Assembly: GCA_964019135.1 (NCBI GenBank)
Contig: OZ025263.1
Coordinates: forward strand, 37,426,133-37,490,132
Source: Arenicola marina
Taxonomy: Eukaryota > Annelida > Polychaeta > Arenicolidae
DNA: 64,000 bases
Reading direction: 5' to 3'
Below are positions 4,284 through 64,000 of the stretch, piece after piece. How positions within the stretch are numbered: position 1 is the stretch's first letter; every line of letters begins with the position of its first letter. A model generated the notes under the pieces. The model was not told the origin of the DNA. It made no database searches and worked only from the letters and a program-made list of their open reading frames with translations. Made by a program: the position numbers and the translations under genes.

Positions 4284-4492
4284 AGGTGATGCTTCCCCGC
4301 AGGATTGGCGTAAACAAGCTAAGCCAATGACTGCGGCTTGTGTAATTGGTACATACGTGGGTCATCCTTATCGCAATGATTCAATGTTAGTAAAGCCCGT
4401 TAGCTATTACTCTTGTCTCGGTTTGAAGAAATGCTTTTACTTTAGTTATGAAATGAAAATTGTGTGAAAACCATGTTTATTTTGTGCTGCAG
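4284..4492 (+). other. Unique 3' end of the intron before e1
   Basis: About 209 bp of non-repetitive, A/T-richer sequence between the 69-bp array and e1, ending in the acceptor tgtgctgcag. No gene or RNA seen. Confidence 0.8.
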
Positions 4493-4594
4493 GACTGGGA
4501 GAATAGACAAGAGGAAGATCGCCTTCTAATTGAGAGAATCTTGATACTGGTGCGGAATATCCTCCATGTTCCCCCAAACCCAGTGAACGAACAG
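4493..4594 (+). CDS. TIMELESS: TIMELESS exon e1
   Basis: 34 codons in phase 0, starting with GAC TGG after the acceptor tgtgctgcag and ending at CAG before donor gtaacc. The motif [10 protein letters not shown] followed by LVRNILHVP is a hallmark of the TIMELESS N-terminal helical domain. Read-through into intron 1 meets TAA in the first 51-bp repeat unit. Confidence 0.96.
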
Positions 4595-40500: not shown

Positions 40501-43500
40501 GGGGAGGGAGGTGAGTGAGGTGTGGTACTTCCAATGCCGTAATGGCGAGGGTGGGGGGGCAGGTGTGGTACTTCCATGCCGTGATGGCGAGGGTGGGGGG
40601 GAGGTGTGGTACTTCCAATGCCGTGATGGCGAGGGTGGGGGGGGGAAGGTGTGGTACTTCCAATGCCGTGATGGCGAGAGTGGGGGGGGGAGGTGTGGTA
40701 CTTCCAATGCCGTGATGGCGAGGAGGGGGGGGAGAGGGAGGTGAGTGAGGTGTGGTACTTCCAATGCCGTAATGGCGAGGGTGGGGGGGGAGGTGTGGTA
40801 CTTCCAATGCCGTGATGGCGAGGGTGGGGGGGGGAGGTGTGGTACTTCCAATGGCCGTGATGGCGAGGGGTGGGGGGGAGGTGTGGTACTTCCAATGCCG
40901 TGATGGCGAGGGTGGGGGGGGGGAGGTATGGTACTTCCAATGCCGTGATGGCGAGGGTGGGGGGGGAGGTGTGGTACTTCCAATGCCGTGATGGCGAGAG
41001 TGGGGGGGGGGGGAGGTGTGGTACTTCCAATGCCGTGATGGCGAGAGTGGGGGGGGGGGGGAGAGGGAGGTGAGTGAGGGTGTGGTACTTCCAATGCCGT
41101 GATGGCGAGAAGTGGTGGGGGGAGGTGTGGTACTTCCAATGCCGCGATGGCGAGAGTGGGGGGGGGGGGAGAGGGGAGGTGAGTGAGGTGTGGTACTTCC
41201 AAATGCCGTGATGGCGAGAGTGGGGGGGGAGGTTGTGGTACTTCCAATGCCGTTGATGGCGAGAGTGGGGGCGGAGTGAGGTGAGTGAGGTGTGGTACTT
41301 CCAATGCCGTAATGGCGAGAGTGGGGGGGGGGGGAGAGGGAGGTGAGTGAGGTGTGGTACTTCCAATGCCGTAATGCGAGGGTGGGGGGGGGGAGGTGTG
41401 GTACTTCCAATGCCGTGATGGCGAGGGTGGGGGGGGAGGTGTGGTACTTCCAATGCCGTGATGGCGAGGGTGGGGGGGGGGGAGGTTGTGGTACTTCCAA
41501 TGCCGTGATGGCGAGGGTGGGGGGGGGAGGTGTGGTACTTCAAATGCGTGATGGCGAGAGTGGGNNNNNNNNNNNNNNNNNNNNNNNNNNNNNNNNNNNN
41601 NNNNNNNNNNNNNNNNNNNNNNNNNNNNNNNNNNNNNNNNNNNNNNNNNNNNNNNNNNNNNNNNNNNNNNNNNNNNNNNNNNNNNNNNNNNNNNNNNNNN
41701 NNNNNNNNNNNNNNNNNNNNNNNNNNNNNNNNNNNNNNNNNNNNNNNNNNNNNNNNNNNNNNNNGTGGTACTTCCAATGCCGTGATGGCGAGGGTGGGGG
41801 GGGGAGGGAGGTGAGTGAGGTGTGGTACTTCCAATACCGTGATGGCGAGAGTGGGGGGGTGGAGAGGGAGGTGAGTGAGGTGTGGTACTTCCAATGCCGT
41901 AATGGCGAGGGTGGGGGGCGGGAGGTGTGGTACTTCCAATGCCGTGATGGCGAGGGTGGGGGGGGGAGGTGTGGTACTTCCAATGCCGCGATGGCGAGGG
42001 TGGGGGTGGGGAGGGGTGGGGGTGAGTGAGGTGTGGTACTTCCAATGCCGTGATGGCGAGGGTGGGGGTGGGAAGGGGTGGGGGTGAGTGAGGTGTGGTA
42101 CTTCCAATGCCGTGATGGCGAGGGTGGTGGAGTGAGGTGTGGTACTTCCAATGCCGTGATGGCGAGGGTGGGGGGGGGGGGGAGGTGTGGTACTTCCAAT
42201 GCCGTGATGGCGAGGGTGGTGGAGTGAGGTGTGGTACTTCCAATACCGTGATGGCGAGAGTGGGGGGGGGGAGGTGTGGTACTTCCAATGCCGTGATGGC
42301 GAGGGTGGTGGTGGTGGGGGGGGGAGGTGATTGAGGTGTGGTACTTCCAATGCCGTGATGGCGAGGGTGGTGGAGTGAGGTGTGGTACTTCCAATGCCGT
42401 GATGGCGAGGGTGGTGGTGGTGGGGGGGGGGGGGAGGTGATTGAGGTGTGGTACTTCCAATGCCGTGATGGCGAGGGTGGTGGAGTGAGGTGTGGTACTT
42501 CCAATACCGTGATGGCGAGAGTGGGGGGGGAGGGAGGTGAGTGAGGTGTGGTACTTCCAATGCCGTAATGGCGAGGGTGGGGGGGGGGGAGGTGTGGTAC
42601 TTCCAATGCCGTGATGGCGAGGGTGGGGGGGGGGGGAGGGAGGTGAGTGAGGTGTGGTACTTCCAATGCCGTGATGGCGAGGGTGGGGGGGGAGGTGTGG
42701 TACTTCCAATGCCGTGATGGCGAGGGTGGGGGGGGGGAGGGAGGTGAGTGAGGTGTGGTACTTCCAATGCCGTGATGGCGAGAGTGGGGGGGGGAGGGAG
42801 GTGAGTGAGGTGTGGTACTTCCAATACCGTGATGGCGAGAGTGGGGGGGGAGGTGTGGTACTTCCAATGCCGTGATGGCGAGAGTGGGGGGGGGGAGGTG
42901 TGGTACTTCCAATGCCGTAATGGCGAGGGTGGGGGGGGAGGTGTGGTACTTCCAATGCCGTGATGGCGAGGGTGGTGGAGTGAGGTGTGGTACTTCCAAT
43001 ACCGTGATGGCGAGAGTGGGGGGGGGGGGAGGTGAGTGAGGTGTGGTACTTCCAATGCCGTAATGGCGAGGGTGGGGGGGGGGGGGAGGAGGTGAGTGAG
43101 GTGTGGGGTACTTCCAATGCCGTAATGGCGAGGGTGGGGGGGCAGGTGTGGTACTTCCAATGTCGTGATGGCGAGGGTGGGGGGGGAGGTGTGGTACTTC
43201 CAATGCCGTGATGGCGAGGGTGGGGGGGGGGGGAGGTGTGGTACTTCCAATGCCGTGATGGCGAGGGTGGGGGGGGGGAGGGGTGGTACTTCCAATGCCG
43301 TGATGGCGAGGGTGGGGGGGGGGGAGGTGTGGTACTTCCAATGCCGTGATGGCGAGGGTGGGGGGGGGGGAGGGGTGGTACTTCCAATGCCGTGATGGCG
43401 AGAGTGGGGGGGGGGGAGAGGGAGGTGAGTGAGGTGTGGTACTTCCAATGCCGTGATGGCGAGGGTGGGGGGGGGGAGGTGTGGTACTTCCAATGCCGTG

Positions 43501-46500
43501 ATGGCGAGGGTGGGGGGGGGGAGGTGTGGTACTTCCAATGCCGTGATGGCGAGGGTGGGGGGGGGGAGGTGTGGTACTTCCAATGCCGTGATGGCGAGAG
43601 TGGGGGGGGAGGTGTGGTACTTCCAATGCCGTGATGGCGAGGGTGGGGGGGGGGGGGGGAGGTGTGGTACTTCCAATGCCGTGATGGCGAGAGTGGGGGG
43701 GGGGGGAGGTGTGGTACTTCCAATGCCGTGATGGCGAGGGTGGGGCGGGGAGGTGTGGTAGTTCGAATGCCGTGAGGGCGAGGGTGGGAGGAGGGGGGGG
43801 AAGAGGTGAGTGAGGTGTGGTACTTCCAATGCCGTGATGGCGAGGGTGGCGGGGTGGGGGGCAAGGTGAGTGAGGTGTGGTACTTCCAATGCCGTGATGG
43901 CGAGGGTGGTGGTGGTGGGGGGGGGAGGTGATTAAGGTGTGGTACTTCGAATGCCGTGAGGGCGAGGGTGGCGGGGGGGGGGGGGAGGTGAGTGAGGTAT
44001 GGTACTTCCAGTGCCGTGATGGCGAGGGTGGGGGTGTTGGAATGAGGTGTGGTACTTCCAATGGCGAGGGTGGTGGTGGTGGGGGGGGGGGGAGGTGATT
44101 GAGGTGTGGTACTTCGAATGCCGTGAGGGCGAGGGTGGCGTGGGGGGGGGAGGTGAGTGAGGTGTGGTACTTTCAATGCCGTGAGGGCGAGGGTGGGGGA
44201 GTCAGGTGTGGTACTTCCAATGCCGTGATGGCGAGAGGGGGGGGGGCGTGAGTGAGGTGTGGTACTTCCAATGCCGTGATGGCGAGGGGGAGGGGGGGCG
44301 TGAGTGAGGTGGGGTACTTCCAATGCCGTGATGGCGAGGGGGGGGGGGGGCGTGAGTGAGGTGGGGTACTTCCAATGCCGTGTTGGCGAGGGTGGGGGGG
44401 GGAGGTGTGGTACTTCCAATGCCGTGATGGCGAGGGGGGGGGCGTGAGTGAGGTGGGGTACTTCCAATGCCGTGAGGGCGAGGGTGGGGGAGTGAGGTGG
44501 GGTACTTCCAATGCCGTGATGGCGAGGGTGGTGGAGTGAGGTGTGGTACTTCCAATGCCGTGATGGCGAGGGTGGGGGAGTGAGGTGTGGTACTTCCAAT
44601 GCCGTGAGGGCGAGGGTGGTGGTGGTGAGTGGGGGGGGGAGGTGATTGAGGTGTGGTACTTCCAATGCCGTGATGGCGAGGGTGGGGGTTGAGGTGTGGT
44701 ACTTCCAATGCCGTGATGGCGAGGGTGGGGGTGTTGGAATGAGGTGTGGTACTTCCAATGCCGTGAGGGCGAGGGTGGGGGAGTGAGGTGTGGTACTTCC
44801 AATGCCGTGAGGGCGAGGGTGGTGGTGGTGAGTGGGGGGGGGAGGTGATTGAGGTGTGGTACTTCCAATGCCGTGATGGCGAGGGTGGGGGTTGAGGTGT
44901 GGTACTTCCAATGCCGTGATGGCGAGGGTGGGGGTGTTGGAATGAGGTGTGGTACTTCCAATGCCGTGAGGGCGAGGGTGGGGGAGTGAGGTGTGGTACT
45001 TCCAATGCCGTGAGGGCGAGGGTGGTGGTGGTGAGTGGGGGGGGGAGGTGATTGAGGTGTGGTACTTCCAATGCCGTGATGGCGAGGGTGGGGGTTGAGG
45101 TGTGGTACTTCCAATGCCGTGATGGCGAGGGTGGGGGTGTTGGAATGAGGTGTGGTACTTCCAATGCCGTGAGGGCGAGGGTGGGGGAGTGAGGTGTGGT
45201 ACTTCCAATGTCGTGATGGCGAGGGTGGGGGTTGAGGTGTGGTACTTCCAATGCCGTGATGGCGAGGGTGGGGGTTGAGGTGTGGTACTTCCAATGTCGT
45301 GATGGCGAGGGTGGGGGTTGAGGTGTGGTACTTCCAATGCCGTGATGGCGAGGGTGGGTGTTGAGGTGTGGTACTTCCAATGCCGTGATGGCGAGGGTGG
45401 GTGTTGAGGTGTGGTACTTCCAATGCCGTGATGGCGAGGGTGGGGGTGTTGGAATGAGGTGTGGTACTTCCAATGCCGTGATGGCGAGGGTGGGGGAGTG
45501 AGGTGTGGTACTTCCAATGTCGTGATGGCGAGGGTGGGGGAGTGAGGTGTGGTACTTCCAATGTCGTGATGGCGAGGGTGGGGGAGTGAGGTGTGGTACT
45601 TCCAATGTCGTGATGGCGAGGGTGGGGGTTGAGGTGTGGTACTTCTAGTGCCGGAATTAAGAATTATCACATTTACTTCTTTTTCCAGGGAGACCCTCTC
45701 TATACCGACGTTCCACTACATTCAGACCAACATGCAGAACTTTCATGAGATGATGATGAGTCAGAAGAAAGAAGCCATTGTTTGGTCTAGAAGGTGGGTG
45801 GGTAGTCAGCGTCTGACGTGCTTTATGTTGACTAGTGAGCATATCGTGTTTTAGGTTTGTTGATAATTAATATTCTGATGATCGTGTGGTGTTTCCAGGA
45901 TGCATTTGGCCTTGAAGTCTTACCATGAGCTGCTGCAGAGCTTGGCTGCCATGGACCGGGCGGAAGATAGACAGATCCGCGAGAGTTCCCGAGTCCTCAA
46001 GGGTAAGGCGTCCGTCGCTCCAGGGTCAGCAAGGGTAAGGTGTCCATCGCTCCAGGGTCACCAAGGGTAAGATGTCCATCGCTCCAGGGTAACCAAGGGT
46101 AAGGCGTCCGTCGCTCCAGGGTCACCAAGGGTAAGGCGTCCATCGCTCCAGGGTCACCAAGGGTAAGGCGTCCATCGCTCCAGGGTCATCAAGGGTAAGG
46201 CGTCCATCGCTCCAGGGTCATCAAGGGTAAGGCGTCCATCGCTCCAGGGTCACCAAGGGTAAGGCGTCCATCGCTCCAGGGTCATCAAGGGTAAGGCGTC
46301 CATCGCTCCAGGGTCACCAAGGGTAAGGCGTCCATCGCTCCAGGGTCACCAAGGGTAAGGCGTCCATCGCTCCAGGGTCATCAAGGGTAAGGCGTCCATC
46401 GCTCCAGGGTCACCAAGGGCAAGACGTCCATCGCTCCAGGGTCATCAAGGGTAAGGCGTCCATCGCTCCAGGGTCACCAAGGGTAAGGCGTCCATCGCTC

Positions 46501-49500
46501 CAGGGTCACCAAGGGTAAGGCGTCCATCGCTCCAGGGTCATCAAGGGTAAGGCGTCCATCGCTCCAGGGTCATCAAGGGTAAGGCGTCCATCGCTCCAGG
46601 GTCACCAAGGGTAAGGCGTCCATCGCTCCAGGGTCACCAAGGGTAAGGCGTCCATCGCTCCAGGGTCACCAAGGGTAAGGCGTCCATCGCTCCAGGGTCA
46701 TCAAGGGTAAGGCGTCCGTCGCTCCAGGGTCACCAAGGGTAAGGCGTCCATCGCTCCAGGGTCACCAAGGGTAAGGCGTCCATCGCTCCAGGGTCACCAA
46801 GGGTAAGGCGTCCATCGCTCCAGGGTCACCAAGGGTAAGATGTCCATCGCTCCAGGGTCACCAAGGGTAAGGGGTCCATCGCTCCAGGGTCACCAAGGGT
46901 AAGGCGTCCGTCGCTCCAGGGTCATCAAGGGTAAGGCGTCCGTCGCTCCAGGGTCACCAAGGGTAAGGCGTCCATCGCTCCAGGGTCACCAAGGGTAAGG
47001 CGTCCATCGCTCCAGGGTCACCAAGGGTAAGGCGTCCGTCGCTCCAGGGTCATCAAGGGCAAGGCGTTCATCGCTCCAGGGTCATCAAGTGCAAGGCGTC
47101 CATCGCTCCAGGGTCATCAAGGGCAAGGCGTCCATCGCTCCAGGGTCACCAAGGGTAAGGCGTCCATCGCTCCAGGGTCACCAAGGGTAAGGCGTCCATC
47201 GCTCCAGGGTCATCAAGGGCAAGACGTCCATCGCTCCAGGGTCACCAAGGGTAAGGCGTCCATCGCTCCAGGGTCATCAAGGGCAAGGCGTCCATCGCTC
47301 CAGGGTCACCAAGGATAAGGCGTCCATCGCTCCAGGGTCACCAAGGGTAAGGCGTCCATCGCTCCAGGGTCACCAAGGGCAAGGCGTCCATCGCTCCAGG
47401 GTCATCAAGGGCAAGGCGTCCATCGCTCCAGGGTCAAGGGCAAGGCGTCCATCGCTACAGGGTCACCAAGGGCAAGGCGTCCATCGCTCCAGGGTCAAGG
47501 GCAAGGCGTCCATCGCTACAGGGTCACCAAGGGCAAGGCGTCCATCGCTCCAGGGTCATCAAGGGCAAGGCGACCGTCGCTCTAGGGTCATCAAGGGTAA
47601 GGCGTCCATCGCTCCAGGGTCATCAAGGGCAAGGCGTCCATCGCTCCAGGGTCATCAAGGGCAAGGCGTCCATCGCTCCAGGGTCACCAAGGGTAAGGCG
47701 TCCATCGCTCCAGGGTCACCAAGGGCAAGACGTCCATCGCTCCAGGGTCATCAAGGGCAAGGTGTCCATCGCTCCAGGGTCATCAAGGGTAAGGCGTCCG
47801 TCGCTCCAGGGTCACCAAGGGTAAGGCGTCCATCGCTCCAGGGTCATCAAGGGCAAGGCGTCCATCGCTCCAGGGTCATCAAGGGCAAGGCGTCCATCGC
47901 TCCAGGGTCACCAAGGGCAAGGCGTCCATCGCTCCAGGGTCACCAAGGGTAAGGCGTCCATCGCTCCAGGGTCACCAAGGGCAAGGCGTCCATCGCTCCA
48001 GGGTCATCAAGGGTAAGGCGTCCATCGCTCCAGGGTCATCAAGGGCAAGGCTCTGCTCTTCATATGTAATAATGGCCAATATTTCTGGTAGTGCTCTCGA
48101 ATAAAATTAACGGGTATTATATTTAAATGGCGTAATATATTGGGATTAATATCCTGAAAGTCCTTTTGGACCTTGGATCTGAACTTTGAGGCATCTTACG
48201 CTCTTTATGTGACATGAGACCTGTGATGCCGCGTGATGAGTCAAGACTGACTGTACAGACTGTGCAGAAATCATCGACTGTTCTTATAAAACAACTTACT
48301 TTACTTCTGTATGTATTTTCAGGAAATGTCTTCTACACGATGGAATACAGAGACATCTTTGTGATGTTGCTGCGGAGGTTTGATGAGACCAAGCAGTCCA
48401 GGTGAGTGTGCTTTGTGTTGCCCAAGTCATCGCCGCTCTGCATTATCACTGCTTTCATGATACTGTGAAGAATGAAGTGTTTGGTTTACAAGGGCGAGAC
48501 AAGTTAAACATAAACATAAACATAAATGCTTGTGTTTCTTCTATGGCTTGATGTGTTATATTTCTTTTAATGTACAAAGGCTTTATTTCCACCAGTTTGC
48601 CTGTTCAGAGGGCTCTACCAGTTGGATGCATGTCATTGCTGGGCTCCATTCTTCCTGTCTCAGGTCCTTCCTCAAGGATCTGGTCGAGGCGACACATCTG
48701 TTTGTGAAGATGTTGGAGCAGTTCTCCAAGCAGACCGGCCACTTGGTGGTCCAGCGCAAGAGGACGAAGCGGCGCCCGCGACAGAACAAACACCACCTGG
48801 GTAACCTAGGTAACCGCGGTGTGGCCCGACCCGCAGTAACCACTAACACGACCTGGGTAACCTTTGTGTGGCGCGACCCGCAGTAACTGCAAACACGACC
48901 TGGGTAACCTTTGTGTGGCCCGACCCGCAGTAACTACAAACACGACCTGGGTAACCTTTGTGTGGCCCGACCCGCAGTAACTACAAACACGACCTGGGTA
49001 ACCTTTGTGTAGCCCGACCCGCAGTAACTGCAAACACGACCTGGGTAACCTTTGTGTGGCCCGACCCGCAGTAACCACAAACACGACCTGGGTAACCTTT
49101 GTGTGGCCCGACCCACAGTAACTACCAACACGACCTGGGTAACCTTTGTGTGGCCCGACCCGCAGTAACTGCAAACACGACCTGGGTAACCTTTGTGTGG
49201 CCCGACCCGCAGTAACTACAAACACTACCTTGGTAACCTTTGTGTGGCCCGACCCGCAGTAACTGCAAACACGACCTGGGTAACCTTTGTGTGGCCCGAC
49301 CCGCAGTAACCACAAACACGACCTGGGTAACCTTTGTGTGGCCCGACCCGCAGTAACTACAAACACGACCTGGGTAACCTTTGTGTGGCCCGACCCGCAG
49401 TAACCACAAACACGACCTGGGTAACCTTTGTGTGGCCCGACCCGCAGTAACTACCGACACGACCTGGGTAACCTTTGTGTGGCCCGACCCGCAGTAACTG

Positions 49501-52500
49501 CAAACACGACCTGGGTAACCTTTGTGTGGCCCGACCCGCAGTAACTGCAAACACGACCTGGGTAACCTTTGTGTGGCCCGACCCGCAGTAACCACAAACA
49601 CGACCTGGGTAACCTTTGTGTGGCCCGACCCACAGTAACTACCAACACGACCTGGGTAACCTTTGTGTGGCCCGACCCGCAGTAACTGCAAACACGACCT
49701 GGGTAACCTTTGTGTGGCCCGACCCGCAGTAACTATAAACACGACCTGGGTAACCTTTGTGTGGCCCGACCCGCAGTAACTACCAACACGACCTGGGTAA
49801 CCTTTGTGTGGCCCGACCCGCAGTAACTGCAAACACGACCTGGGTAACCTTTGTGTGGCCCGACCCGCAGTAACTGCAAACACGACCTGGGTAACCTTTG
49901 TGTGGCCCGACCCGCAGTAACCACAAACACGACCTGGGTAACCTTTGTGTGGCCCGACCCGCAGTAACTACAAACACGACCTGGGTAACCTTTGTGTGGC
50001 CCGACCCGCAGTAACCACAAACACGACCTGGGTAACCTTTGTGTGGCCCGACCCGCAGTAACTACCGACACGACCTGGGTAACCTTTGTGTGGCCCGACC
50101 CGCAGTAACTGCAAACACGACCTGGGTAACCTTTGTGTGGCCCGACCCGCAGTAACTGCAAACACGACCTGGGTAACCTTTGTGTGGCCCGACCCGCAGT
50201 AACCACAAACACGACCTGGGTAACCTTTGTGTGGCCCGACCCACAGTAACTACCAACACGACCTGGGTAACCTTTGTGTGGCCCGACCCGCAGTAACTGC
50301 AAACACGACCTGGGTAACCTTTGTGTGGCCCGACCCGCAGTAACTATAAACACGACCTGGGTAACCTTTGTGTGGCCCGACCCGCAGTAACTACCAACAC
50401 GACCTGGGTAACCTTTGTGTGGCCCGACCCGCAGTAACTGCAAACACGACCTGGGTAACCTTTGTGTGGCCCGACCCGCAGTAACTACAAACACGACCTG
50501 GGTAACCTTTGTGTGGCCCGACCCGCAGTAACTACAAACACGACCTGGGTAACCTTTGTGTGGCCCGACCCGCAGTAACCACAAACACGACCTGGGTAAC
50601 CTTTGTGTGGCCCGACCCGCAGTAACCACAAACACGACCTGGGTAACCTTTGTGTGGCCCGACCCCCAGTAACTACAAACACGACCTGGGTAACCTTTGT
50701 GTGGCCCGACCGGCAGTAACCACAAACACGACCTGGGTAACCTTTGTGTGGCCCGACCCGCAGTAACCACAAACACTACCTGGGTAACCTTTGTGTGGCC
50801 CGACCCGCAGTAACCACAAACACGACCTGGGTAACCTTTGTGTGGCCCGACCCGCAGTAACCACAAACACGACCTGGGTAACCTTTGTGTGGCCCGACCC
50901 GCAGTAACTGCAAACACGACCTGGGTAACCTTTGTGTGGCCCGACCCGCAGTAACTACCAACACGACCTGGGTAACCTTTGTGTGGCCCGACCCGCAGTA
51001 ACTGCAAACACGACCTGGGTAACCTTTGTGTGGCCCGACCCGCAGTAACTACAAACACGACCTGGGTAACCTTTGTGTGGCCCGACCCGCAGTAACTACA
51101 AACACGACCTGGGTAACCTTTGTGTGGCCCGACCCGCAGTAACCAGAAACACGACCTGGGTAACCTTTGTGTGGCCCGACCCGCAGTAACTACAAACACG
51201 ACCTGGGTAACCTTTGTGTGGCCCGACCCGCAGTAACCACAAACACGACCTGGGTAACCTTTGTGTGGCCCGACCCGCAGTAACTACAAACACGACCTGG
51301 GTGACCTTTTTTGTGGCCCGACCCGCAGTAACTACCGACACGACCTGGGTAACCTTTGTGTGGCCCGACCCGCAGTAACCACAAACACGACCTGGGTAAC
51401 CTTTGTGTGGCCCGACCCGCAGTAACTACCGACACGACCTGGGTAACCTTTGTGTGGCCCGACCCGCAGTAACTACCAACACGACCTGGGTAACCTTTGT
51501 GTGGCCCGACCCGCAGTAACTACCGACACGACCTGGGTAACCTTTGTGTGGCCCGACCCGCATTAACTACAGACACGACCTGGGTAACCTTTTTTGTGGC
51601 CCGACCCGCAGTAACTACCGACACGACCTGGGTAACCTTTGTGTGGCCCGACCCGCAGTAACTACCGACACGACCTGGGTAACCTTTGTGTGGCCTGACC
51701 CGCAGTAACCAGAAACACGACCTGGGTAACCTTTGTGTGGCCCGACCCGCAGTAACTACAGGCACGACCTGGGTAACCTTTGTGTGGCCCGACCCGCAGT
51801 AACTACCGACACGACGTGGGTAACCTTTGTGTGGCCCGACCCGCAGTAACTACCAACACGACCTGGGTAACCTTTGTGTGGCCCGACCCGCAGTAACTAC
51901 CAACACGACCTGGGTAACCTTTGTGTGGCCCGACCCGCAGTAACTACAAACACGACCTGGGTAACCTTTGTGTGGCCCGACCCGCAGTAACTACAAACAC
52001 GACCTGGGTAACCTTTGTGTGGCCCGACCCGCAGTAACCACAAACACGACCTGGGTAACCTTTGTGTGGCCCGACCCGCAGTAACTACCGACACGACCTG
52101 GGTAACCTTTGTGTGGCCCGACCCGCAGTAACTACCGACACGACCTGGGTAACCTTTGTGTGGCCCGACCCGCATTAACTACAAACACGACCTGGGTAAC
52201 CTTTTTTGTGGCCCGACCCGCAGTAACTACCGACACGACCTGGGTAACCTTTGTGTGGCCCGACCCGCAGTAACCACAAACACGACCTGGGTAACCTTTG
52301 TGTGGCCCGACCCGCAGTAACTACCGACACGACCTGGGTAACCTTTGTGTGGCCCGACCCGCAGTAACTACCAACACGACCTGGGTAACCTTTGTGTGGC
52401 CCGACCCGCAGTAACTACCGACACGACCTGGGTAACCTTTGTGTGGCCCGACCCGCATTAACTACAGACACGACCTGGGTAACCTTTTTTGTGGCCCGAC

Positions 52501-54227
52501 CCGCAGTAACTACCGACACGACCTGGGTAACCTTTGTGTGGCCCGACCCGCAGTAACTACCAACACGACCTGGGTAACCTTTGTGTGGCCTGACCCGCAG
52601 TAACCAGAAACACGACCTGGGTAACCTTTGTGTGGCCCGACCCGCAGTAACTACAGGCACGACCTGGGTAACCTTTGTGTGGCCCGACCCGCAGTAACTA
52701 CCAACACGACCTGGGTAACCTTTGTGTGGCCCGACCCGCAGTAACTACCAACACGACCTGGGTAACCTTTGTGTGGCCCGACCCGCAGTAACTACAGACA
52801 CAACCTGGGTAACCTTTGTGTGGCCCGACCCGCAGTAACTACCAACACGACCTGGGTAACCTTTGTGTGGCCCGACCCGCAGTAACTACCAACACGACCT
52901 GGGTAACCTTTGTGTGGCCCGACCCGCAGTAACTACCGACACGACCTGGGTAACCTTTGTGTGGCCCGACCCGCAGTAACTACAGACACAACCTGGGTAA
53001 CCTTTGTGTGGCCCGACCCGCAGTAACTACCGACACGACCTGGGTAACTTTGTGTGGCCCGACCCGCAGTAACTACCAACACGACCAGGGTAACCTTTGT
53101 GTGGCCCGACCCGCAGTAACTACAGACACGACCTGGGTAACCTTTTTTGTGGCCCGACCCGCAGTAACTACCGACACGACCTGGGTAACCTTTGTGTGGC
53201 CCGACCCGCAGTAACTACCAACACGACCTGGGTAACCTTTGTGAGGCCCGACCCGCAGTAACTACCAACACGACCTAGGTAACCTTTTTTGTGGCCCGAC
53301 CCGCAGTAACTACCGACACGACCTGGGTAACCTTTTTTGTGGCCCGACCCGCAGTAACTACAGACACGACCTGGGTAAGCTTTGTGTGGCCCGACCCGCA
53401 GTAACTACAGACACGACCTGGGTAACCTTTGTGTGGCCTGACCCGCAGTAACCACAAACACGACCTGGGTAACCATTGTGTGGCCCGACCCGCAGTAACT
53501 ACAGACACGACCTGGGTAACCTTTGTGTGGCCCGACCCGCAGTAACTACCGACACGACCTGGGTAACCTTTTTTGTGGCCCGGCCCGCAGTAACTACCGA
53601 CACGACCTGGGTAACCTTTGTGTGGCCCGACCCGCAGTAACTACCGACACGACCTGGGTAACCTTTGTGTGGCCCGACCCGCAGTAACTACCAACACGAC
53701 CTGGGTAACCTTTTTTGTGGCCCGACCCGCAGTAACTACCAACACGACCTGGGTAACCTTTGTGTGGCCCGACCCGCATTAACTACAGACACGACCTGGG
53801 TAACCTTTGTGTGGCCCGACCCGCAGTAACTACAGACACGACCTGGGTAACCTTTGTGTGGCCCGACCCGCATTAACTACAGACACGACCTGGGTAACCT
53901 TTGTGTGGCCCGACCCTCAGTAACTACAAACACGTCGTTAGTAGAAATGTATAAATACAACCCTAACTTCAACAGCTGCTACAAATTGTCTTTAAATGCA
54001 TCGTTCGATGTACTTGTTAATTCTGTAGGTTAATGTTGCACTTCATTACTCTAATTTTAACCATCAGGTCAAAAGATGCCGGACCGTGAGTTTAGCGAAG
54101 AGCAACTAGAGGACATGTGGGATGACATCAGCAGTGACCTGTCGGCCATCTTCCAGGGCCGGGCAGCCCTGCCCAGTGACGTCACGCCCTTCGACGCAGC
54201 GTCCGGTGTGGAGCTGGAAGAGCAGCG
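4493..54227 (+). CDS. TIMELESS: TIMELESS (timeout/TIM1-type) replication fork protection protein, internal 12 exons
   Basis: Seen: twelve exons at 4493-4594, 10683-10723, 11511-11625, 20203-20267, 28487-28555, 37409-37673, 37912-38024, 45689-45793, 45899-46002, 48323-48401, 48664-48800 and 54068-54227 splice into one open frame of 1355 nt. All borders are GT-AG and phases match (introns 1 to 12: 0,2,0,2,2,0,2,2,1,2,1,2). The peptide is colinear with vertebrate TIMELESS from roughly residue 145 to residue 640 as I remember it, so the start codon and the C-terminal third (including the PARP1-binding region) lie outside. Known: TIMELESS with TIPIN, CLASPIN and AND-1 stabilises replication forks in the nucleus and supports ATR-CHK1 signalling; the yeast counterpart is Tof1/Swi1. 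The N-terminal part is an alpha-helical repeat fold. Two basic clusters, in e6 and e11, look like nuclear localisation or DNA-contact segments. It resembles the replication-type protein more than the insect circadian paralogue tim. No stop or frameshift was found in any exon. Confidence 0.96.
4660..10520. repeat. 51-bp minisatellite (intron 1)
   Basis: About 115 copies of a 51-bp unit (17 codons), for example ggtcgccgagctggtggtta followed by ggccgccagtaatgagtgag. The array starts 65 bp after the e1 donor. Because 51 is a multiple of three and several frames lack stops, both strands show very long false open frames. Early units include a variant with aaagagaaagggacg. A dimer (102-bp) pattern alternates between about 7500 and 7760. 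A marked variant (gagagacccc) recurs 2549 bp apart, at 7163 and 9712, which is fifty units less one base. Confidence 0.98.
10521..10682 (+). other. Unique 3' end of intron 1
   Basis: 162 bp of non-repeat sequence from the end of the 51-bp array to the acceptor of e2, with a T-rich tract before ttttaacttcag. Nothing else recognised. Confidence 0.8.
10683..10723 (+). CDS. TIMELESS: TIMELESS exon e2 (short)
   Basis: A 41-nt exon encoding [11 protein letters not shown] plus the first two bases of a Trp codon, which e3 completes. Acceptor is ttttaacttcag and donor is a near-perfect gtaagt. The same donor context is repeated 99 and 198 bp downstream (GT at 10823 and 10922). Read-through gives TAA directly after the Trp codon. 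Confidence 0.95.
10720..10955 (+). repeat. 99-bp tandem repeat that duplicates the e2 splice donor
   Basis: Two full 99-bp units and a partial third. Each starts tatg/gtaagtggcactga, the first being the true e2/intron 2 junction, and the copies have GT at 10823 and 10922. The unit is itself built from two related halves sharing ccatggcagttc and gcactgattgg. It looks like an early stage of the donor-anchored arrays seen in other introns. Confidence 0.93.
10956..11510 (+). other. Remainder of intron 2
   Basis: Non-tandem sequence with a short run of gtgacattggtgac and actgaatattactgaatg repeats near 11020-11085, then a MITE-like segment (listed separately), then the pyrimidine-rich acceptor of e3. 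A 60-codon frame over e3 is only the exon extended into its flanks. Confidence 0.7.
11231..11451. mobile_element. Possible MITE-like element in intron 2
   Basis: About 220 bp bounded by an imperfect inverted repeat: gtattcataat near 11239 faces attatgaag near 11438. The start caggggccgtattcataat resembles the ends of short non-autonomous elements common in marine animals. Internal short palindromes (aaaagtacgtttt) add to this. No clear target-site duplication is visible, so the call is tentative. Confidence 0.35.
11511..11625 (+). CDS. TIMELESS: TIMELESS exon e3
   Basis: 115 nt: one base finishing Trp, then 38 codons ending in [10 protein letters not shown], the strongly conserved TIMELESS segment. 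Acceptor is gtttgtcccag, donor gtaacc. The phase agrees with both neighbours. Confidence 0.96.
11717..19428 (+). repeat. 46-bp minisatellite (intron 3) carrying 3'-splice-site-like motifs
   Basis: About 168 copies of a 46-bp unit, very uniform, length fitting 167.7 units exactly. Each unit holds gctgactggcctctgccttacag/gag, which reads as a branch-point-like CTGAC, a pyrimidine-rich stretch and a CAG/G acceptor about 20 nt later. Variants: cccggg for cactgg, ttacaag, ttactgg, ggtctctg. The ttacaag variant recurs at 15651, 15927, 16479 and 17123, spaced 6, 12 and 14 whole units, so blocks of units were copied together. Confidence 0.98.
19429..20165. mobile_element. Non-autonomous DNA transposon (MITE) with terminal inverted repeats, 737 bp including TA
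   Basis: The left end (TA)CCATCATTTACGTATG and onward to ggaacacc is matched by the reverse complement of the right end, CCGTCATTTACGTATG to ggaacacc, with two mismatches in about 28 bp. TA flanks both ends, fitting a TA target duplication. The motif tgttttRgWacacc is repeated inside the left end (19445, 19472, 19524, 19567) and near the right end (20101). There is no transposase. The interior holds two short frames of 81 codons, one per strand, and a minus-strand frame (19638-19742) with an acidic DSDDEEF stretch; none can be assigned. TA duplication suggests a Tc1/mariner-like or other TA-targeting superfamily, but the end sequence is not one I recognise. Confidence 0.85.
20203..20267 (+). 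CDS. TIMELESS: TIMELESS exon e4
   Basis: 65 nt encoding [11 protein letters not shown] and a following acidic segment, ending two bases into a Lys codon. Acceptor ttgttttag, donor gtaagc. It matches the NPEQL-type region that follows MFR-x-Q in vertebrate TIMELESS. It lies only 37 bp after the right end of the inserted DNA transposon. Confidence 0.93.
20302..28267. repeat. 27-bp minisatellite (intron 4), pyrimidine-rich
   Basis: About 295 copies of a 27-bp unit (tattataatg then tctcccctccctgtccg). The array starts about 35 bp after the e4 donor and ends 219 bp before e5. The consensus has no AG dinucleotide. Units of 25 bp (tattattg) mark block borders at 23724, 24749, 24962, 26202, 26524, 26846 and 27276. 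322-bp blocks follow in tandem at 26202-26845, and two blocks of about 1240 bp (from 23724 and 24962) are almost identical over at least 900 bp. Long false frames on both strands arise because 27 is a multiple of three. Confidence 0.98.
28268..28486 (+). other. Unique 3' end of intron 4
   Basis: 219 bp of ordinary sequence between the 27-bp array and e5, with the acceptor gtccttgcag. Nothing else recognised. Confidence 0.8.
28487..28555 (+). CDS. TIMELESS: TIMELESS exon e5
   Basis: 69 nt encoding a charged helix ending [10 protein letters not shown], with the Arg codon split across intron 5. Acceptor gtccttgcag, donor gtacgg. It corresponds to the segment just before the conserved HSRFGG motif. 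The reading frame stays open into the intron 5 repeats up to 29117. Confidence 0.94.
28556..37297 (+). repeat. 33-bp minisatellite (intron 5) with joined AG/GT motifs
   Basis: Roughly 270-290 copies of a 33-bp unit, gtgtatctacacccagacac then tcacaccttacag, with shorter forms of 29, 27 and 25 bp. The first, shortened unit begins at the e5 donor (gtacggcaccagacac). Every unit border reads ccttacag/gtgtat. Marker variants define higher-order blocks: tgtatctacgcc at 32391, 32751, 33210, 33702 and 34029, with spacings 360, 459, 492 and 327 that differ by whole 33-bp units; cctgtgtatctacacccact near 35910, 36129, 36408 and 36750; and three 72-bp units with gtgtatgtatatgccg at 37111, 37183 and 37255. 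Confidence 0.97.
37298..37408 (+). other. Unique 3' end of intron 5
   Basis: 111 bp between the 33-bp array and e6, ending in a T-rich tract and atttgcag. Confidence 0.8.
37409..37673 (+). CDS. TIMELESS: TIMELESS exon e6 (largest exon here)
   Basis: 265 nt. It opens with HSRFGGTF, the best-known conserved motif of TIMELESS/timeout proteins, continues through a KSISDND segment, a basic run [10 protein letters not shown] that could serve as a nuclear signal or DNA contact, and a helical block with [14 protein letters not shown]. Acceptor atttgcag, donor gtgacc, ending in phase 0. Confidence 0.97.
37674..37911 (+). other. Intron 6, short and array-free
   Basis: 238 bp of ordinary intron sequence between e6 and e7; donor gtgacc, acceptor tggcccacag. 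One of three introns here without tandem repeats. Confidence 0.9.
37912..38024 (+). CDS. TIMELESS: TIMELESS exon e7
   Basis: 113 nt encoding [11 protein letters not shown] and then [18 protein letters not shown], almost identical in pattern to vertebrate TIMELESS. Acceptor tggcccacag, donor gtacgt. Ends two bases into a Gly codon completed by e8. Confidence 0.97.
38056..45654 (+). repeat. G-rich minisatellite of about 44 bp with variable G runs (intron 7)
   Basis: Around 155 copies of gaggtgtggtacttccaatg then ccgtgatggcgagggt followed by 5 to 14 G. The variable G run and linkers (gtggagtgag, ggtggtggtgg, gagggaggtgagt, gttgaggtg, tgttggaatgag) make the period vary from about 40 to 60 bp. 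It starts about 30 bp after the e7 donor and runs to 34 bp before e8. From about 44170 on, units have a less extended G run. One-base irregularities cluster from about 39940 to 41560, next to the gap. Confidence 0.96.
41565..41764. other. Assembly gap (200 N)
   Basis: Exactly 200 N inside the G-rich array of intron 7. Units on both sides are of the same family, so the true length of the array is unknown. The irregular units just left of the gap suggest poor base calls. Confidence 0.99.
45689..45793 (+). CDS. TIMELESS: TIMELESS exon e8
   Basis: 105 nt encoding [14 protein letters not shown] and a Met-rich helix ending KKEAIVWSR. Acceptor tctttttccag, donor gtgggt. The split Arg codon is completed by e9, 105 bp downstream. 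Confidence 0.96.
45794..45898 (+). other. Intron 8, short and array-free
   Basis: 105 bp, donor gtgggt, acceptor gtgtttccag. Ordinary A/T-rich intron with no repeat. Confidence 0.92.
45899..46002 (+). CDS. TIMELESS: TIMELESS exon e9
   Basis: 104 nt encoding [12 protein letters not shown] and ending RESSRVLK plus one base. Acceptor gtgtttccag, donor gtaagg. The last ten or so exon bases and the donor are repeated about 64 times in the following 32-bp array. Confidence 0.96.
46003..48050 (+). repeat. 32-bp minisatellite (intron 9) repeating the e9 splice donor
   Basis: About 64 copies of a 32-bp unit, gtaaggcgtccatcgctcca then gggtcaycaagg. The first unit starts exactly at the real donor GT (46003) and the next GT is at 46035. 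The unit end gggtcatcaagg closely matches the exon end gagtcctcaagg. Before about 47040 nearly all units keep GGGTAAGG; after that about half read GGGCAAGG. Two shortened units lack catcaa near 47430-47500. Confidence 0.97.
48051..48322 (+). other. Unique 3' end of intron 9
   Basis: 272 bp, A/T-rich, with no repeat. A 63-codon frame from 48214 is only e10 extended upstream. Acceptor tgtattttcag. Confidence 0.8.
48323..48401 (+). CDS. TIMELESS: TIMELESS exon e10
   Basis: 79 nt encoding [19 protein letters not shown], a conserved TIMELESS block, ending two bases into an Arg codon. Acceptor tgtattttcag, donor gtgagt. Confidence 0.96.
48402..48663 (+). other. Intron 10, short and array-free
   Basis: 262 bp, donor gtgagt, acceptor tcctgtctcag. 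Contains a tiny run of the hexamer cataaa near 48505. No minisatellite. Confidence 0.9.
48664..48800 (+). CDS. TIMELESS: TIMELESS exon e11
   Basis: 137 nt encoding [18 protein letters not shown] followed by a basic tail [10 protein letters not shown] that resembles the Lys/Arg-rich segment at this place in vertebrate TIMELESS. Acceptor tcctgtctcag, donor gtaacc. The last 15 exon bases are copied with one mismatch into the 47-bp repeat of intron 11. Confidence 0.96.
48801..53938 (+). repeat. 47-bp minisatellite (intron 11) repeating the e11 exon-intron junction
   Basis: About 109 copies of a 47-bp unit, gtaacctttgtgtggcccga then cccgcagtaactac and acacgacctgg. The first unit starts at the real donor GT (48801) and is 56 bp long owing to an extra gtaaccta-like piece. 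The unit end acacgacctgg/gtaacc copies the e11 end acaccacctgg/gtaacc. A 13-unit block of 611 bp is duplicated (49357-49967 and 49968 onward). A variant with ttttttgtggcc and the form ctaccgacacg dominate after about 51300. Period 47 is not a multiple of three, so the long minus-strand frames cycle through all three phases. Confidence 0.97.
53939..54067 (+). other. Unique 3' end of intron 11
   Basis: 129 bp of A/T-rich sequence up to the acceptor ttaaccatcag of e12. Nothing else seen. Confidence 0.8.
54068..54227 (+). CDS. TIMELESS: TIMELESS exon e12
   Basis: 160 nt encoding an acidic segment with [12 protein letters not shown] and ending [16 protein letters not shown], matching the VVPFDAAS block of vertebrate TIMELESS. 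Acceptor ttaaccatcag, donor gtgagt. The first 37-bp repeat unit of intron 12 starts exactly at this donor GT. No later exon lies in the window. Confidence 0.95.
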
Positions 54228-57200
54228 GTGAGTGTGGGAGCCGCCTTAGTGCTGTCCCTGTCCGGTGGGTGTGGGAGCCGCCTTAGTGCTGTCCCTGTCC
54301 GGTGGGTGTGGGAGCCGCCTTAGTGCTGTCCCTGTCCGGTGGGTGTGGGAGCCGCCTTAGTGCTGTCCCTGTCCGGTGGGTGTGGAAGCCGCCTTAGTTC
54401 TGTCCCTGTCCGGTGGGTGTGGAAGCCGCCTTAGTTCTGTCCCTGTCCGGTGGCTGTGGGAGCCGCCTTAGTGCTGTTCCTGTCCGGTGGGTGTGGGAGC
54501 CGCCTTAGTGCTGTCCCTATCCGGTGGGTGTGGGAGCCGCCTTAGTGCTGTCCCTGTCCGGTAGGTGTGGGAGCCGCCTTAGTGCTGTCCCTGTCCGGTG
54601 GGTGTGGGAGCCGCCTTAGTGCTGTCCCTGTCCGGTGGGTGTGGGAGCCGCCTTAGTGCTGTCCCTGTCCGGTGGGTGTGGGAGCCGCCTTAGTGCTGTT
54701 CCTGTCCGGTGGGTGTGGGAGCCGCCTTACTGCTGTCCCTGTCCGGTGGGTGTGGAAGCCGCCTTAGTGCTGTCCCTGTCCGGTGGGTGTGGGAGCCGCC
54801 TTAGTGCTGTCCCTGTCCGGTGGGTGTGGGAGCCGCCTTAGTGCTGTCCCTGTCCGGTGGGTGTGGGAGCCGCCTTAGTGCTGTCCCTGTCCGGTGTGTG
54901 TGGGAGCCGCCTTAGTGCTGTCCCTGTCCGGTGGGTGTGGGAGCCGCCTTAGTGCTGTCCCTGTCCGGTGGGTGTGGGAGCCGCCTTAGTTCTGTCCCTG
55001 TCCGGTGGGTGTGGGAGCCGCCTTAGTGCTGTCCCTATCCGGTGGGTGTGGGAGCCGCCTTAGTGCTGTCCCTGTCCGGTGGGTGTGGGAGCCGCCTTAG
55101 TGCTGTCCCTGTCCGGTGAGTGTGGGAGCCGCCTTAGTGCTGTCCCTGTCCGGTGGCTGTGGGAGCCGCCTTAGTGTGCTGTCCCTGTCCGGTGGGTGTG
55201 GGAGCCGCCTTAGTGCTGTCCCTGTCCGGTGGGTGTGGGAGCCGCCTTAGTGCTGTCCCTGTCCGGTGGCTGTGGGAGCCGCCTTAGTGCTGTCCCTGTC
55301 CGGTGGCTGTGGGAGCCGCCTTAGTGCTGTCCCTGTCCGGTGGCTGTGGGAGCCGCCTTAGTGCTGTCCCTGTCCGGTGGGTGTGGGAGCCGCCTTAGTG
55401 CTGTCCCTGTCCGGTGTGTGTGGGAGCCGCCTTAGTGCTGTCCCTGTCCGGTGGGTGTGGGAGCCGCCTTAGTGCTGTCCCTGTCCGGTGGGTGTGGGAG
55501 CCGCCTTAGTGCTGTCCCGGTCCGGTGGCTGTGGGAGCCGCCTTAGTGCTGTCCCTGTCCGGTGGGTGTGGGAGCCGCCTTAGTGCTGTCCCTCTCCGGT
55601 GGGTGTGGGAGCCGCCTTAGTGCTGTCCCTGTCCGGTGGGTGTGGGAGCCGCCTTAGTGCTGTCCCTGTCCTGTGGGTGTGGGACCCGCCTTAGTGCTGT
55701 CCCTCTCCGGTGGGTGTGGGAGCCGCCTTAGTGCTGTCACTGTCCGGTGGGTGTGGGAGCCGCCTTAGTGCTGTCCCTGTCCGGTGGGTGTGGGAGCCGC
55801 CTTAGTGCTGTCCCTGTCCGGTGGGTGTGGGAGCCGCCTTAGTGCTGTCCCTGTCCGGTGGGTGTGGGAGCCGCCTTAGTGCTGTCCCTGTCCGGTGGCT
55901 GTGGGAGCCGCCTTAGTGCTGTCCCTGTCCGGTGGGTGTGGAAGCCGCCTTAGTGCTGTCCCTGTCCGGTGGGTGTGGGAGCCGCCTTAGTGCTGTCCCT
56001 GTCCGGTGGGTGTGGGAGCCGCCTTAGTGCTGTCCCTGTCCGGTGTGTGTGGGAGCCGCCTTAGTGCTGTCCCTGTCCGGTGGGTGTGGGAGCCGCCTTA
56101 GTGCTGTCCCTGTCCGGTGGGTGTGGGAGCCGCCTTAGTGTGCTGTCCCTGTCCGGTGGGTGTGGGAGCCGCCTTAGTGCTGTCCCTGTCCGGTGGGAGT
56201 GGGAGCCGCCTTAGTGCTGTCCCTGTCCGGTGGGTGTGGGAGCCGCCTTAGTGCTGTCCCTGTCCGGTGGGTGTGGGAGCCGCCTTAGTGCTGTCCCTGT
56301 CCGGTGGGAGTGGGAGCCGCCTTAGTGCTGTCCCTGTCCGGTGGGTGTGGGAGCCGCCTTAGTGCTGTCCCTGTCCGGTGGGTGTGGGAGCCGCCTTAGT
56401 GCGGTCCGGTGGGTGTGGGAGCCGCCTTAGTGCTGTCCCTGTCCGGTGGGTGTGGGAGCCGCCTCAGTGCGGTCCGGTGGGTGTGGGAGCCGCCTTAGTG
56501 CTGTCCGGTGGATGTGGGAGCCGCCTTAGTGCTGTCCCTGTCCGGTGGGTGTGGGAGCCGCCTTAGTGCTGTCCGGTGGGTGTGGGAGCCGCCTTACTGC
56601 TGTCCCTGTCCGGTGGGTGTGGGAGCCGCCTTAGTGCTGTCTCTGTCCGGTGGGTGTGGGAGCCGCCTTAGTGATATCCGGTGGGTGTGGGAGCCGCCTT
56701 AGTGCTGTCCCTGTCCGGTGGGTGTGGGAGCCGCCTTAGTGCTGTCCCTGTCCGGTGGGCGTGGGAGCCGCCTTAGTGCTGTCCCTGTCCGGTGGGTGTG
56801 GGAGCCGCCTTAGTGCTGTCCCTGTCCGGTGGGTGTGGGAGCCGCCTTAGTGCTGTCCCTGTCCGGTGGCTGTGGGAGCCGCCTTAGTGCTGTCCCTGTC
56901 CGGTGGGTGTGGGAGCCGCCTTAGTGCTGTCCCTGTCCGGTGGGTGTGGGAGCCGCCTTAGTGCTATCCGGTGGGTGTGGGAGCCGCCTTAGTGCTGTCC
57001 GGTGGGTGTGGGAGCCGCCTTAGTGCTGTCCCTGTCCGGTGGGTGTGGGAGCCGCCTTAGTGCTGTCCCTGTCCGGTGGGTGTGGGAGCCGCCTTAGTGC
57101 TGTCCCTGTCCGGTGGGTGTGGGAGCCGCCTTAGTGCTGTCCCTGTCCGGTGGGTGTGGGAGCCGCCTTAGTGCTGTCCGGTGGCTGTGGGAGCCGCCTT

Positions 57201-60200: not shown

Positions 60201-60958
60201 TCCCTGTCCGGTGGGTGTGGGAGCCGCCTTAGTGCTGTCCCTGTCCGGTGGCTGTGGGAGCCGCCTTAGTGCTGTCACTGTCCGGTGGGTGTGGGAGCCG
60301 CCTTAGTGCTGTCCGGTGGGTGTGGGAGCCGCCTTAGTGCTGTCCGGTGGGTGTGGGAGCCGCCTTAGTGCTGTCCGGTGGGTGTGGGAGCCGCCTTAGT
60401 GCTGTCCCTGTCCGGTGGGTGTGGGAGCCGCCTTAGTGCTGTCCCTGTCCGGTGGGTGTGGGAGCCGCCTTAGTGCTGTCCGGTGGGTGTGGGAGCCGCC
60501 TTAGTGCTGTCCGGTGGGTATGGGAGCCGCCTTCGTGCTGTCCCTGTCCGGTGGGTGTGGGAGCCGCCTTAGTGCTGTCCCTGTCCGGTGGGTGTGGGAG
60601 CCGCCTTAGTGCTGTCCCTGTCCGGTGGCTGTGGGAGCCGCCTTAGTGCTGTCCCTGTCCGGTGTGTGTGGGAGCCGCCTTAGTGCTGTCCCTGTCCGGT
60701 GGGTGTGGGAGCCGCCTTACTGCTGTTCCTGTCCGGTGGGTGTGGGAGCCGCCTTACTGCTGTCCCTGTCCGGTGCCTGTGGGAGCCGCCTTAGTGCTGT
60801 CACTGTCCGGTGGGTGTGGGAGCCGCCTTAGTGCTGTCCCTGTCCGGTGGGTGTGGGAGCCGCCTTAGTGCTGTCCCTGTCCGGTGGGTGTGGGAGCCGC
60901 CTTAGTGCTGTCCCTGTCCGGTGGCTGTTGGAGCCGCCTTACTGCTGTCCCTATCCCG
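54228..60958 (+). repeat. 37-bp minisatellite (intron 12) starting at the e12 donor
   Basis: About 185 copies of a 37-bp unit, gtgggtgtgggagccgcctt then agtgctgtccctgtccg, with a 31-bp form lacking ctgtcc. Unit one (54228-54264) begins at the GT of the e12 donor (gtgagtgtgggag), so the array border and the splice junction coincide. Some inner units revert to gtgagtgtg or gtaagtgtg (for example near 55116, 57954 and 58576), which score better as donors than the consensus gtgggt. Confidence 0.97.
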
Positions 60959-60961
60959 TGG

Positions 60962-63900: not shown

Positions 63901-64000
63901 CACAGGGTAGAGACCATTATTGTAGTGATCCCTGGACTGGTTAATGGGTCACAGGGTAGAGACCATTATTGTAGTGATCCCTGGACTGGTTAATGGGTCA
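60962..64000. repeat. 49-bp minisatellite (intron 12, second array), runs off the window
   Basis: About 62 copies of a 49-bp unit, tagagaccattattgtagtg then atccctggactggttaatgg and gtcacaggg. It follows the 37-bp array with no unique sequence between. A 12-unit, 588-bp higher-order block is visible from the marker gacagtttaatggg at about 62371, 62959 and 63547. Runs of identical units with ttagtgggttacag lie at about 62450-62700 and 62990-63290. No exon was found in this part. Confidence 0.96.

What the first reader, a model, noticed from the sequence alone, without database searches (positions are those of the whole stretch)
45990..54300. Minisatellites anchored at the 5' splice site: array start equals exon-intron border
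In introns 9, 11 and 12 the first repeat unit begins at the GT of the true donor (46003, 48801, 54228), and in intron 2 a 99-bp unit does the same (10724). Intron 5 begins with a shortened unit at its donor. The repeat families are unrelated in sequence and length, so the shared property is position, not ancestry. This suggests a recurrent mechanism that starts tandem duplication at exon-intron junctions, or selection that tolerates expansion only if a donor is kept at the left edge. I recall a similar class in amphioxus ('mirages') but cannot confirm it here.
Basis: partly seen in the sequence, partly recalled or inferred. Interest (0 to 1): 0.82.

Follow-up and report, generated by a model that had tools for sequence, protein, structure and literature searches.

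The report
Minisatellite arrays straddling gene splice donors
In an animal TIMELESS gene whose introns are almost entirely short tandem repeats, several unrelated repeat arrays begin across the exon-intron border so that the splice donor is copied many times over, a pattern already described in amphioxus under the name mirages but here with many more copies.

Summary
The window holds 12 exons of an animal TIMELESS gene; eleven minisatellite arrays fill 92.7% of it. The arrays do not start at GT: the unit also copies the last 4 exon nt (intron 2), 5 (intron 9), about 15 (intron 11, 14/15) and 2 (intron 12, uninformative). They are tandem duplications across the border. Four of 9 arrays touch the donor, unlikely under random placement (P about 1e-7; 2.5e-4 with tolerance). 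The other five start at +13 to +91; the intron 5 claim is not supported. Units keep GT in 42/64, 109/109 and 183/186 copies, but donor columns are not specially conserved: copies look like passengers, only the first donor constrained. No genome is held, so species, splicing and the genome-wide test stay open.

The parts
1..4284 (+). array in the intron before E1, 69 bp x 62; its donor is outside the window
4493..4594 (+). TIMELESS exon (E1 of the window); donor GT at 4595
   Evidence: open frame and homology
4662..10520 (+). intron 1 array, 51 bp x 115; starts +67 from donor, not anchored
10683..10723 (+). TIMELESS exon E2; donor GT at 10724
10720..10951 (+). intron 2 array, 99 bp x 2.3, dimer of 53+46 bp; straddles donor by 4 exon nt (TATG|GTAAGT)
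11511..11625 (+). TIMELESS exon E3; donor GT at 11626
11717..20178 (+). intron 3 array, 46 bp x 167, interrupted at its right end by a MITE-like element; starts +91 from donor, ends 24 nt from acceptor; consensus unit contains an acceptor-like CTGCCTTACAG
19429..20165 (.). MITE-like element with 35-nt terminal inverted repeats (89%) and TA at both ends, inserted in the right end of the intron 3 array
20203..20267 (+). TIMELESS exon E4; donor GT at 20268
20291..28267 (+). intron 4 array, 27 bp x 295, decayed first unit; starts +23 from donor (+6 under a permissive alignment)
28487..28555 (+). TIMELESS exon E5; donor GT at 28556
28569..37297 (+). intron 5 array, 33 bp x 270; starts +13 from donor
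37409..37673 (+). TIMELESS exon E6 (intron 6 after it is array-free, 238 nt)
37912..38024 (+). TIMELESS exon E7; donor GT at 38025
38062..45653 (+). intron 7 array, about 43 bp, G-rich, irregular; starts +37 from donor, ends 35 nt from acceptor
45689..45793 (+). TIMELESS exon E8 (intron 8 after it is array-free, 105 nt)
45899..46002 (+). TIMELESS exon E9; donor GT at 46003
45998..48051 (+). intron 9 array, 32 bp x 64; straddles donor by 5 exon nt (CAAGG|GTAAGG), possibly 16; GT intact in 42 of 64 units
48323..48401 (+). TIMELESS exon E10 (intron 10 after it is array-free, 262 nt)
48664..48800 (+). TIMELESS exon E11; donor GT at 48801, alternative in-frame donor at 48810
48786..53934 (+). intron 11 array, 47 bp x 109, counted from the exon-tail copy (14 of 15 nt match); straddles donor; GT intact in 109 of 109 units
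54068..54227 (+). TIMELESS exon E12; donor GT at 54228
54226..60963 (+). intron 12 array, 37 bp x 186; overlaps exon by 2 nt (CG|GTGAGT); GT intact in 183 of 186 units
60967..64000 (+). second array in intron 12, 49 bp x 62, directly abutting the first (left edge 60964 by circular alignment); runs off the window

Best explanation
Short segments that straddle the exon-intron border of an animal TIMELESS gene were tandemly duplicated, separately in at least introns 2, 9 and 11 and probably 12, and then expanded by ordinary minisatellite turnover (slippage, unequal exchange) into arrays of up to 186 units. Each unit carries a copy of the donor and a piece of exon end. The gene tolerates this because splicing uses the outermost donor, the one joined to the real exon, so the array is removed as intron; later donors would bring a stop or a frameshift (except 48810 in intron 11, which adds 9 nt in frame). 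Only that first donor is held by selection, which fixes the left edge of the array at the border while the copies drift. Shown here: the straddling, the unrelated units, the donor copies, the lack of extra conservation of the copies, the statistical excess at donors, no array of 8 touching an acceptor. Inferred: first-donor use, the expansion process, and why duplications arise or survive preferentially at donors.
For: Exact match across the junction between donor and own unit: 18 nt (i2), 16 nt (i9), 13 nt (i11), against at most 8, 6 and 9 for the 11 other donors tested against the same unit. The exon tail is copied in the unit: i11 14/15 nt, 0 of 313 control coding positions (those ending in G) as good; i9 1 of 313; i2 2 of 313; i11 also 0 of 400 shuffles. 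Exon tails of E2 and E9 encode residues shared with human TIMELESS, so the exon is likely the source. 4 of 9 arrays touch the donor, 0.05-0.07 expected. Without arrays (and the MITE-like element) the 8 fully visible array-bearing introns keep 72-556 nt, median 181, beside array-free introns of 105, 238 and 262 nt, so the arrays look like later additions. The first donor is as strong as or stronger than most copies: i9 8.9 vs mean 6.5, 0 of 63 higher; i12 9.2 vs 7.1, 5 of 185 higher (recalled matrix). In-frame stops come 1, 65, 83 and 1 nt into introns 2, 9, 11 and 12.
Against: No transcripts are available, so donor use is inferred. Intron 12 shares only 2 exon nt, which is uninformative (76 of 313 controls as good), and its consensus junction match (5 nt) is beaten by another donor (8 nt). 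The extension of the intron 9 copy from 5 to 16 nt is not significant in the anchored test (p=0.14). Intron 11 fails the anchored test across its 9-nt insertion (p=0.60), though it passes two others. Five of 9 arrays are not at the donor. The broader test on left edges falls to P=0.02 when the MITE-like element is discounted and 6/35 nt are reserved for splice signals. The donor 48801 scores low (3.3) and no better than its copies. One gene only.
Confidence: 0.7

Rival explanations
1. Donor capture: an array with a donor-like motif arose inside the intron, and deletion of the original donor and spacer brought the exon next to the first array donor.
For: Would explain intron 12, where only 2 exon nt are shared. 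Five other arrays stand 13-91 nt from the donor, as intermediates might.
Against: Units in introns 11, 9 and 2 contain copies of the exon end (14/15, at least 5, and 4 nt), which deletion would not create; for 4-5 nt this argument is weak, for intron 11 strong.
Confidence: 0.12
2. The introns themselves arose by tandem duplication of an AGGT-bearing exon segment (intron gain), and the arrays are what is left of that event.
For: The mechanism has support (review PMC3443670, passages read) and was proposed for amphioxus mirages (PMC3087553). Units in introns 2, 9 and 11 carry exon pieces plus GT.
Against: In the 8 introns with both ends visible, acceptors lie outside the arrays by 24-556 nt of other sequence; no acceptor except that of intron 5 (9 nt, cag|acactc) matches its unit beyond the controls. 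Intron ages were not tested.
Confidence: 0.07
3. Functional array: tandem U1-binding donor copies are kept by selection, for example to protect long introns from premature polyadenylation or to strengthen donor recognition.
For: GT intact in 109/109 (i11) and 183/186 (i12) copies.
Against: Donor columns are not clearly more conserved than other columns: windows at least as conserved as -3..+6 number 10/47 (i11), 15/37 (i12) and 19/32 (i9); in i9 GT is among the least conserved (30/32 windows at least as conserved); only G|GT in i11 stands near the top (4/47). The best sense donor of the unit does not exceed dinucleotide shuffles at p 0.05 in 9 of 11 units.
Confidence: 0.05
4. Chance: a window that is 93% minisatellite will have some arrays abutting donors.
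For: Non-array remainders are short (72-556 nt), so arrays must lie near both ends. Only 9 arrays.
Against: P about 1e-7 for 4 of 9 touching, 2.5e-4 with tolerance; exon copies in the units are not explained by mere abutting.
Confidence: 0.06

Closest known systems
Amphioxus 'mirages' (Adh3, globins BflGb6 and BflGb9; PMC3087553, passages read; the primary Adh paper, Nucleic Acids Res 2002, is not held and was seen only as a reference)
   Same: Minisatellite-like tandem repeats spanning an intron-exon border, at either border; unit lengths of 10-72 bp (Adh3) and 150-160 bp (globins), varying between genes; many but not all copies with splice signals.
   Different: Here several unrelated arrays lie in one gene, with 64, 109 and 186 units in introns 9, 11 and 12 against 6 and 3 in the two BflGb6 haplotypes (intron 2 here has only 2.3); species unknown; RNA and length instability untested.
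Lancelet PGBD5 tandem repeats (PMC3902484, passages read)
   Different: 2-7 copies by the two assemblies that the paper compares; described there as imperfect.
Intron gain by tandem genomic duplication of AGGT segments (PMC3443670, passages read) and human internal tandem repeats at exon-intron boundaries (PMC2812944, passages read)
   Same: Tandem duplication that copies splice signals at coding borders.
   Different: There the duplication makes a new intron from copied sites; here the acceptor is outside the array in the 8 introns with both ends visible, and the reading frame is intact.

Membership tests
Mirage (amphioxus type) | tandem repeat unit spans an exon-intron border (contains exon and intron sequence) | tested here: met
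   introns 2, 9, 11; intron 12 inconclusive with 2 nt
Mirage (amphioxus type) | many but not all copies keep splice signals | tested here: met
   GT in 42/64, 109/109, 183/186 units; losses in two of these three arrays
Mirage (amphioxus type) | border units escape homogenisation | tested here: inconclusive
   first unit identity to consensus 0.94 (i9), 0.87 (i11), 0.97 (i12) against array means 0.961, 0.968, 0.961
Mirage (amphioxus type) | normal splicing in spite of the copies | not testable with these tools
   no transcripts; frame is open across the 12 exons
Mirage (amphioxus type) | length and somatic instability | not testable with these tools
   one sequence only
Mirage (amphioxus type) | found in a cephalochordate | not testable with these tools
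   no genome held for the window, species not named
Intron gain by tandem duplication | both splice sites derive from the duplicated segment | tested here: not met
   the 8 arrays with both ends visible stop 24-556 nt before the acceptor; acceptor junctions match their units no better than controls, except 9 nt in intron 5

The most novel reading that the evidence does not exclude
In this animal lineage a process tied to 5' splice sites (for example breakage or re-replication near the transcribed donor) repeatedly seeds tandem duplication across exon-intron borders, so that minisatellites genome-wide start at donors and whole genes such as TIMELESS come to be over 90% minisatellite while remaining spliceable through a first-donor rule.
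Probability: 0.35. Interest if true: 0.78.

Novelty: new member of a known kind. Interest (0 to 1): 0.5.

Why it matters
Arrays with 42 to 183 intact donor copies in a row, of which apparently only the first may be used, are a natural test of how a spliceosome chooses among near-equal 5' splice sites. They also show where minisatellites can be born: across a border where only the outermost copy is held by selection. If the pattern holds genome-wide, the question whether donors seed tandem duplication becomes directly countable.

Tried and rejected
Strand composition as a seed: GC skew of the 11 units runs from -0.54 to +0.57 with no common sign, so a G-rich non-template strand is not a shared property. 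Donor motifs as a property of units in general: 9 of 11 units have no better sense donor than shuffles at p 0.05; i2 (0.003) and i9 (0.039) do. Decayed units between donor and array: found in intron 4 only (0/300); introns 1, 3, 5 and 7 give p 0.09, 1.0, 0.39 and 1.0, and in the looser scan their stretches score higher with some other array's unit than with their own. Exon resemblance 54201-54220 to the intron 12 unit: p 0.005, one of 8 stretches tested, kept as a hint and not counted. In-phase continuation of the intron 3 unit into the true acceptor: none (p=1.0). Non-coding RNA families at gathering threshold and tRNA genes: none found. Inverted repeats in the non-array parts of introns 2 and 9: none of 14 nt or more. 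A first unit parser lost register in intron 12; its unit counts were replaced, and only its stop positions are used. Paper searches; no paper on donor-anchored arrays in TIMELESS was seen in those listings, which is not proof of absence. Passages of PMC2206037 and PMC3152781 were read and gave nothing on splice-site repeats.

Full report
Gene. The window's 12 exons join into one open frame of 451 codons that matches the Pfam family TIMELESS (PF04821, 128 bits) and human TIMELESS from residue 146 to 596, with gaps only near the E11-E12 junction (7pfo_K, 497 bits). Introns 1-12 begin with GT; introns 1-11 and the one before E1 end with AG. The species is not known: no genome is held for the window.

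Arrays. Tandem Repeats Finder gives 11 main arrays among its 81 rows, covering 59,342 of 64,000 bases, 92.7%, against 1,355 exon bases. Introns 6, 8 and 10 have none. Removing the arrays, and the MITE-like element in intron 3, leaves 72-556 nt per intron (median 181, 8 introns), much like the array-free introns (238, 105 and 262 nt). The arrays are therefore best seen as additions to compact introns.

Position. Circular alignment of each unit to its left border, with an anchored extension test, gives the left edge relative to the donor: intron 1 +67, intron 2 -4, intron 3 +91, intron 4 +23 (one decayed unit, 0/300 shuffles), intron 5 +13, intron 7 +37, intron 9 -5, intron 12 -2. Intron 11 aligns from +3 by that method because its first unit has a 9-nt insertion, but the exon tail ACAAACACCACCTGG matches the unit's ACAAACACGACCTGG at 14 of 15, so the array reaches about -15 (0 of 400 shuffles). 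Four of 9 arrays thus overlap the donor (the array before E1 and the second one in intron 12 are left out). If arrays were placed at random in the intron remainders, 0.05-0.07 would touch it (P 1.2e-7 to 3.5e-7 for four; 2.5e-4 if 0 to +5 nt counts; intron 12's remainder is assumed, since its acceptor is outside the window). A broader test on the left edges of 8 arrays is weaker: P 1e-4 raw, 0.001 with either correction, 0.02 with the MITE-like element removed and 6/35 nt reserved for splice signals. No array of 8 touches an acceptor, but intron 3 comes within 24 nt.

What is copied. The longest exact match across the junction between a donor and its own unit is 18 nt in intron 2, 16 in intron 9 and 13 in intron 11; the 11 other donors reach at most 8, 6 and 9 against the same units. 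In intron 12 it is 5 (others up to 8), because the true donor GTGAGT differs from the common GTGGGT; its first unit is nevertheless 97% identical to the consensus. For introns 1, 3, 4, 5 and 7 the match is within the control range. The exon part of the match beats controls in introns 11 (0 of 313 coding positions), 9 (1 of 313) and 2 (2 of 313), not in 12 (76 of 313). The further extension in intron 9 from 5 to 16 exon nt (12/16) is not significant by the anchored test (p=0.14).

Donor copies. Parsing every unit finds GT intact in 42 of 64 (intron 9), 109 of 109 (intron 11) and 183 of 186 (intron 12). In intron 9 the loss is polar: 94% and 100% in the two donor-side quarters, 31% and 38% in the two far ones, 21 of the 22 losses being GT to GC. 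Donor columns are not clearly more conserved than other columns, so the copies do not look selected. The true donor is not clearly weaker than its copies: intron 9 none of 63 higher, intron 12 5 of 185 higher; in intron 2 it equals the unit's best site (10.4); in intron 11 the donor 48801 equals the common copy (3.3) and 48810 scores 5.6 (recalled matrix). Reading past the true donor meets a stop after 1, 65, 83 and 1 nt in introns 2, 9, 11 and 12.

Interpretation. The evidence favours separate tandem duplications across the border, then expansion, with the outermost donor kept by selection. Why duplications are seen at donors more than elsewhere can be mutation (seeding at donors) or tolerance (a duplication that begins in the exon leaves the first donor in place, while one that copies an acceptor upstream would offer the spliceosome a wrong first AG). 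One gene cannot separate these.

Known work. [quoted passage not shown] units 10-72 bp in Adh3 and 150-160 bp in globins; 6 and 3 copies in the two BflGb6 haplotypes. [quoted passage not shown] The present arrays meet the structural definition in introns 2, 9 and 11. They differ in copy number (introns 9, 11, 12) and in being several in one gene. I file them as new members of that kind, species and splicing untested.

Noticed in passing
19429-20165: A 737-bp MITE-like element with 35-nt terminal inverted repeats (89%) and TA at both ends sits in the right end of the intron 3 array; beyond it 15 nt continue the repeat (12 of 15), ending 24 nt before the acceptor.
   Followed up: yes
11717-19428: The consensus unit of intron 3 (167 copies parsed) holds an acceptor-like stretch (CTGACTGGCCTCTGCCTTACAG|G), yet the true acceptor is not in phase with it.
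   Followed up: partly
37406-37414 and the intron 5 array: The intron 5 acceptor junction cag|acactc (9 nt) occurs in the intron 5 repeat unit; other acceptors reach 5 at most against that unit. Suggestive of an acceptor-side origin, not proven.
   Followed up: partly
45998-48051: Donor GT in the intron 9 units is intact in nearly all of the donor-side half and mostly GC in the far half, a polar pattern.
   Followed up: partly
60963-60967: Two unrelated arrays (37 bp and 49 bp) abut within intron 12 with no clear spacer; the units of the second carry AGG|GTAGAG.
   Followed up: no
1-64000: 92.7% of the window is minisatellite inside introns of one gene, an extreme share in itself.
   Followed up: partly
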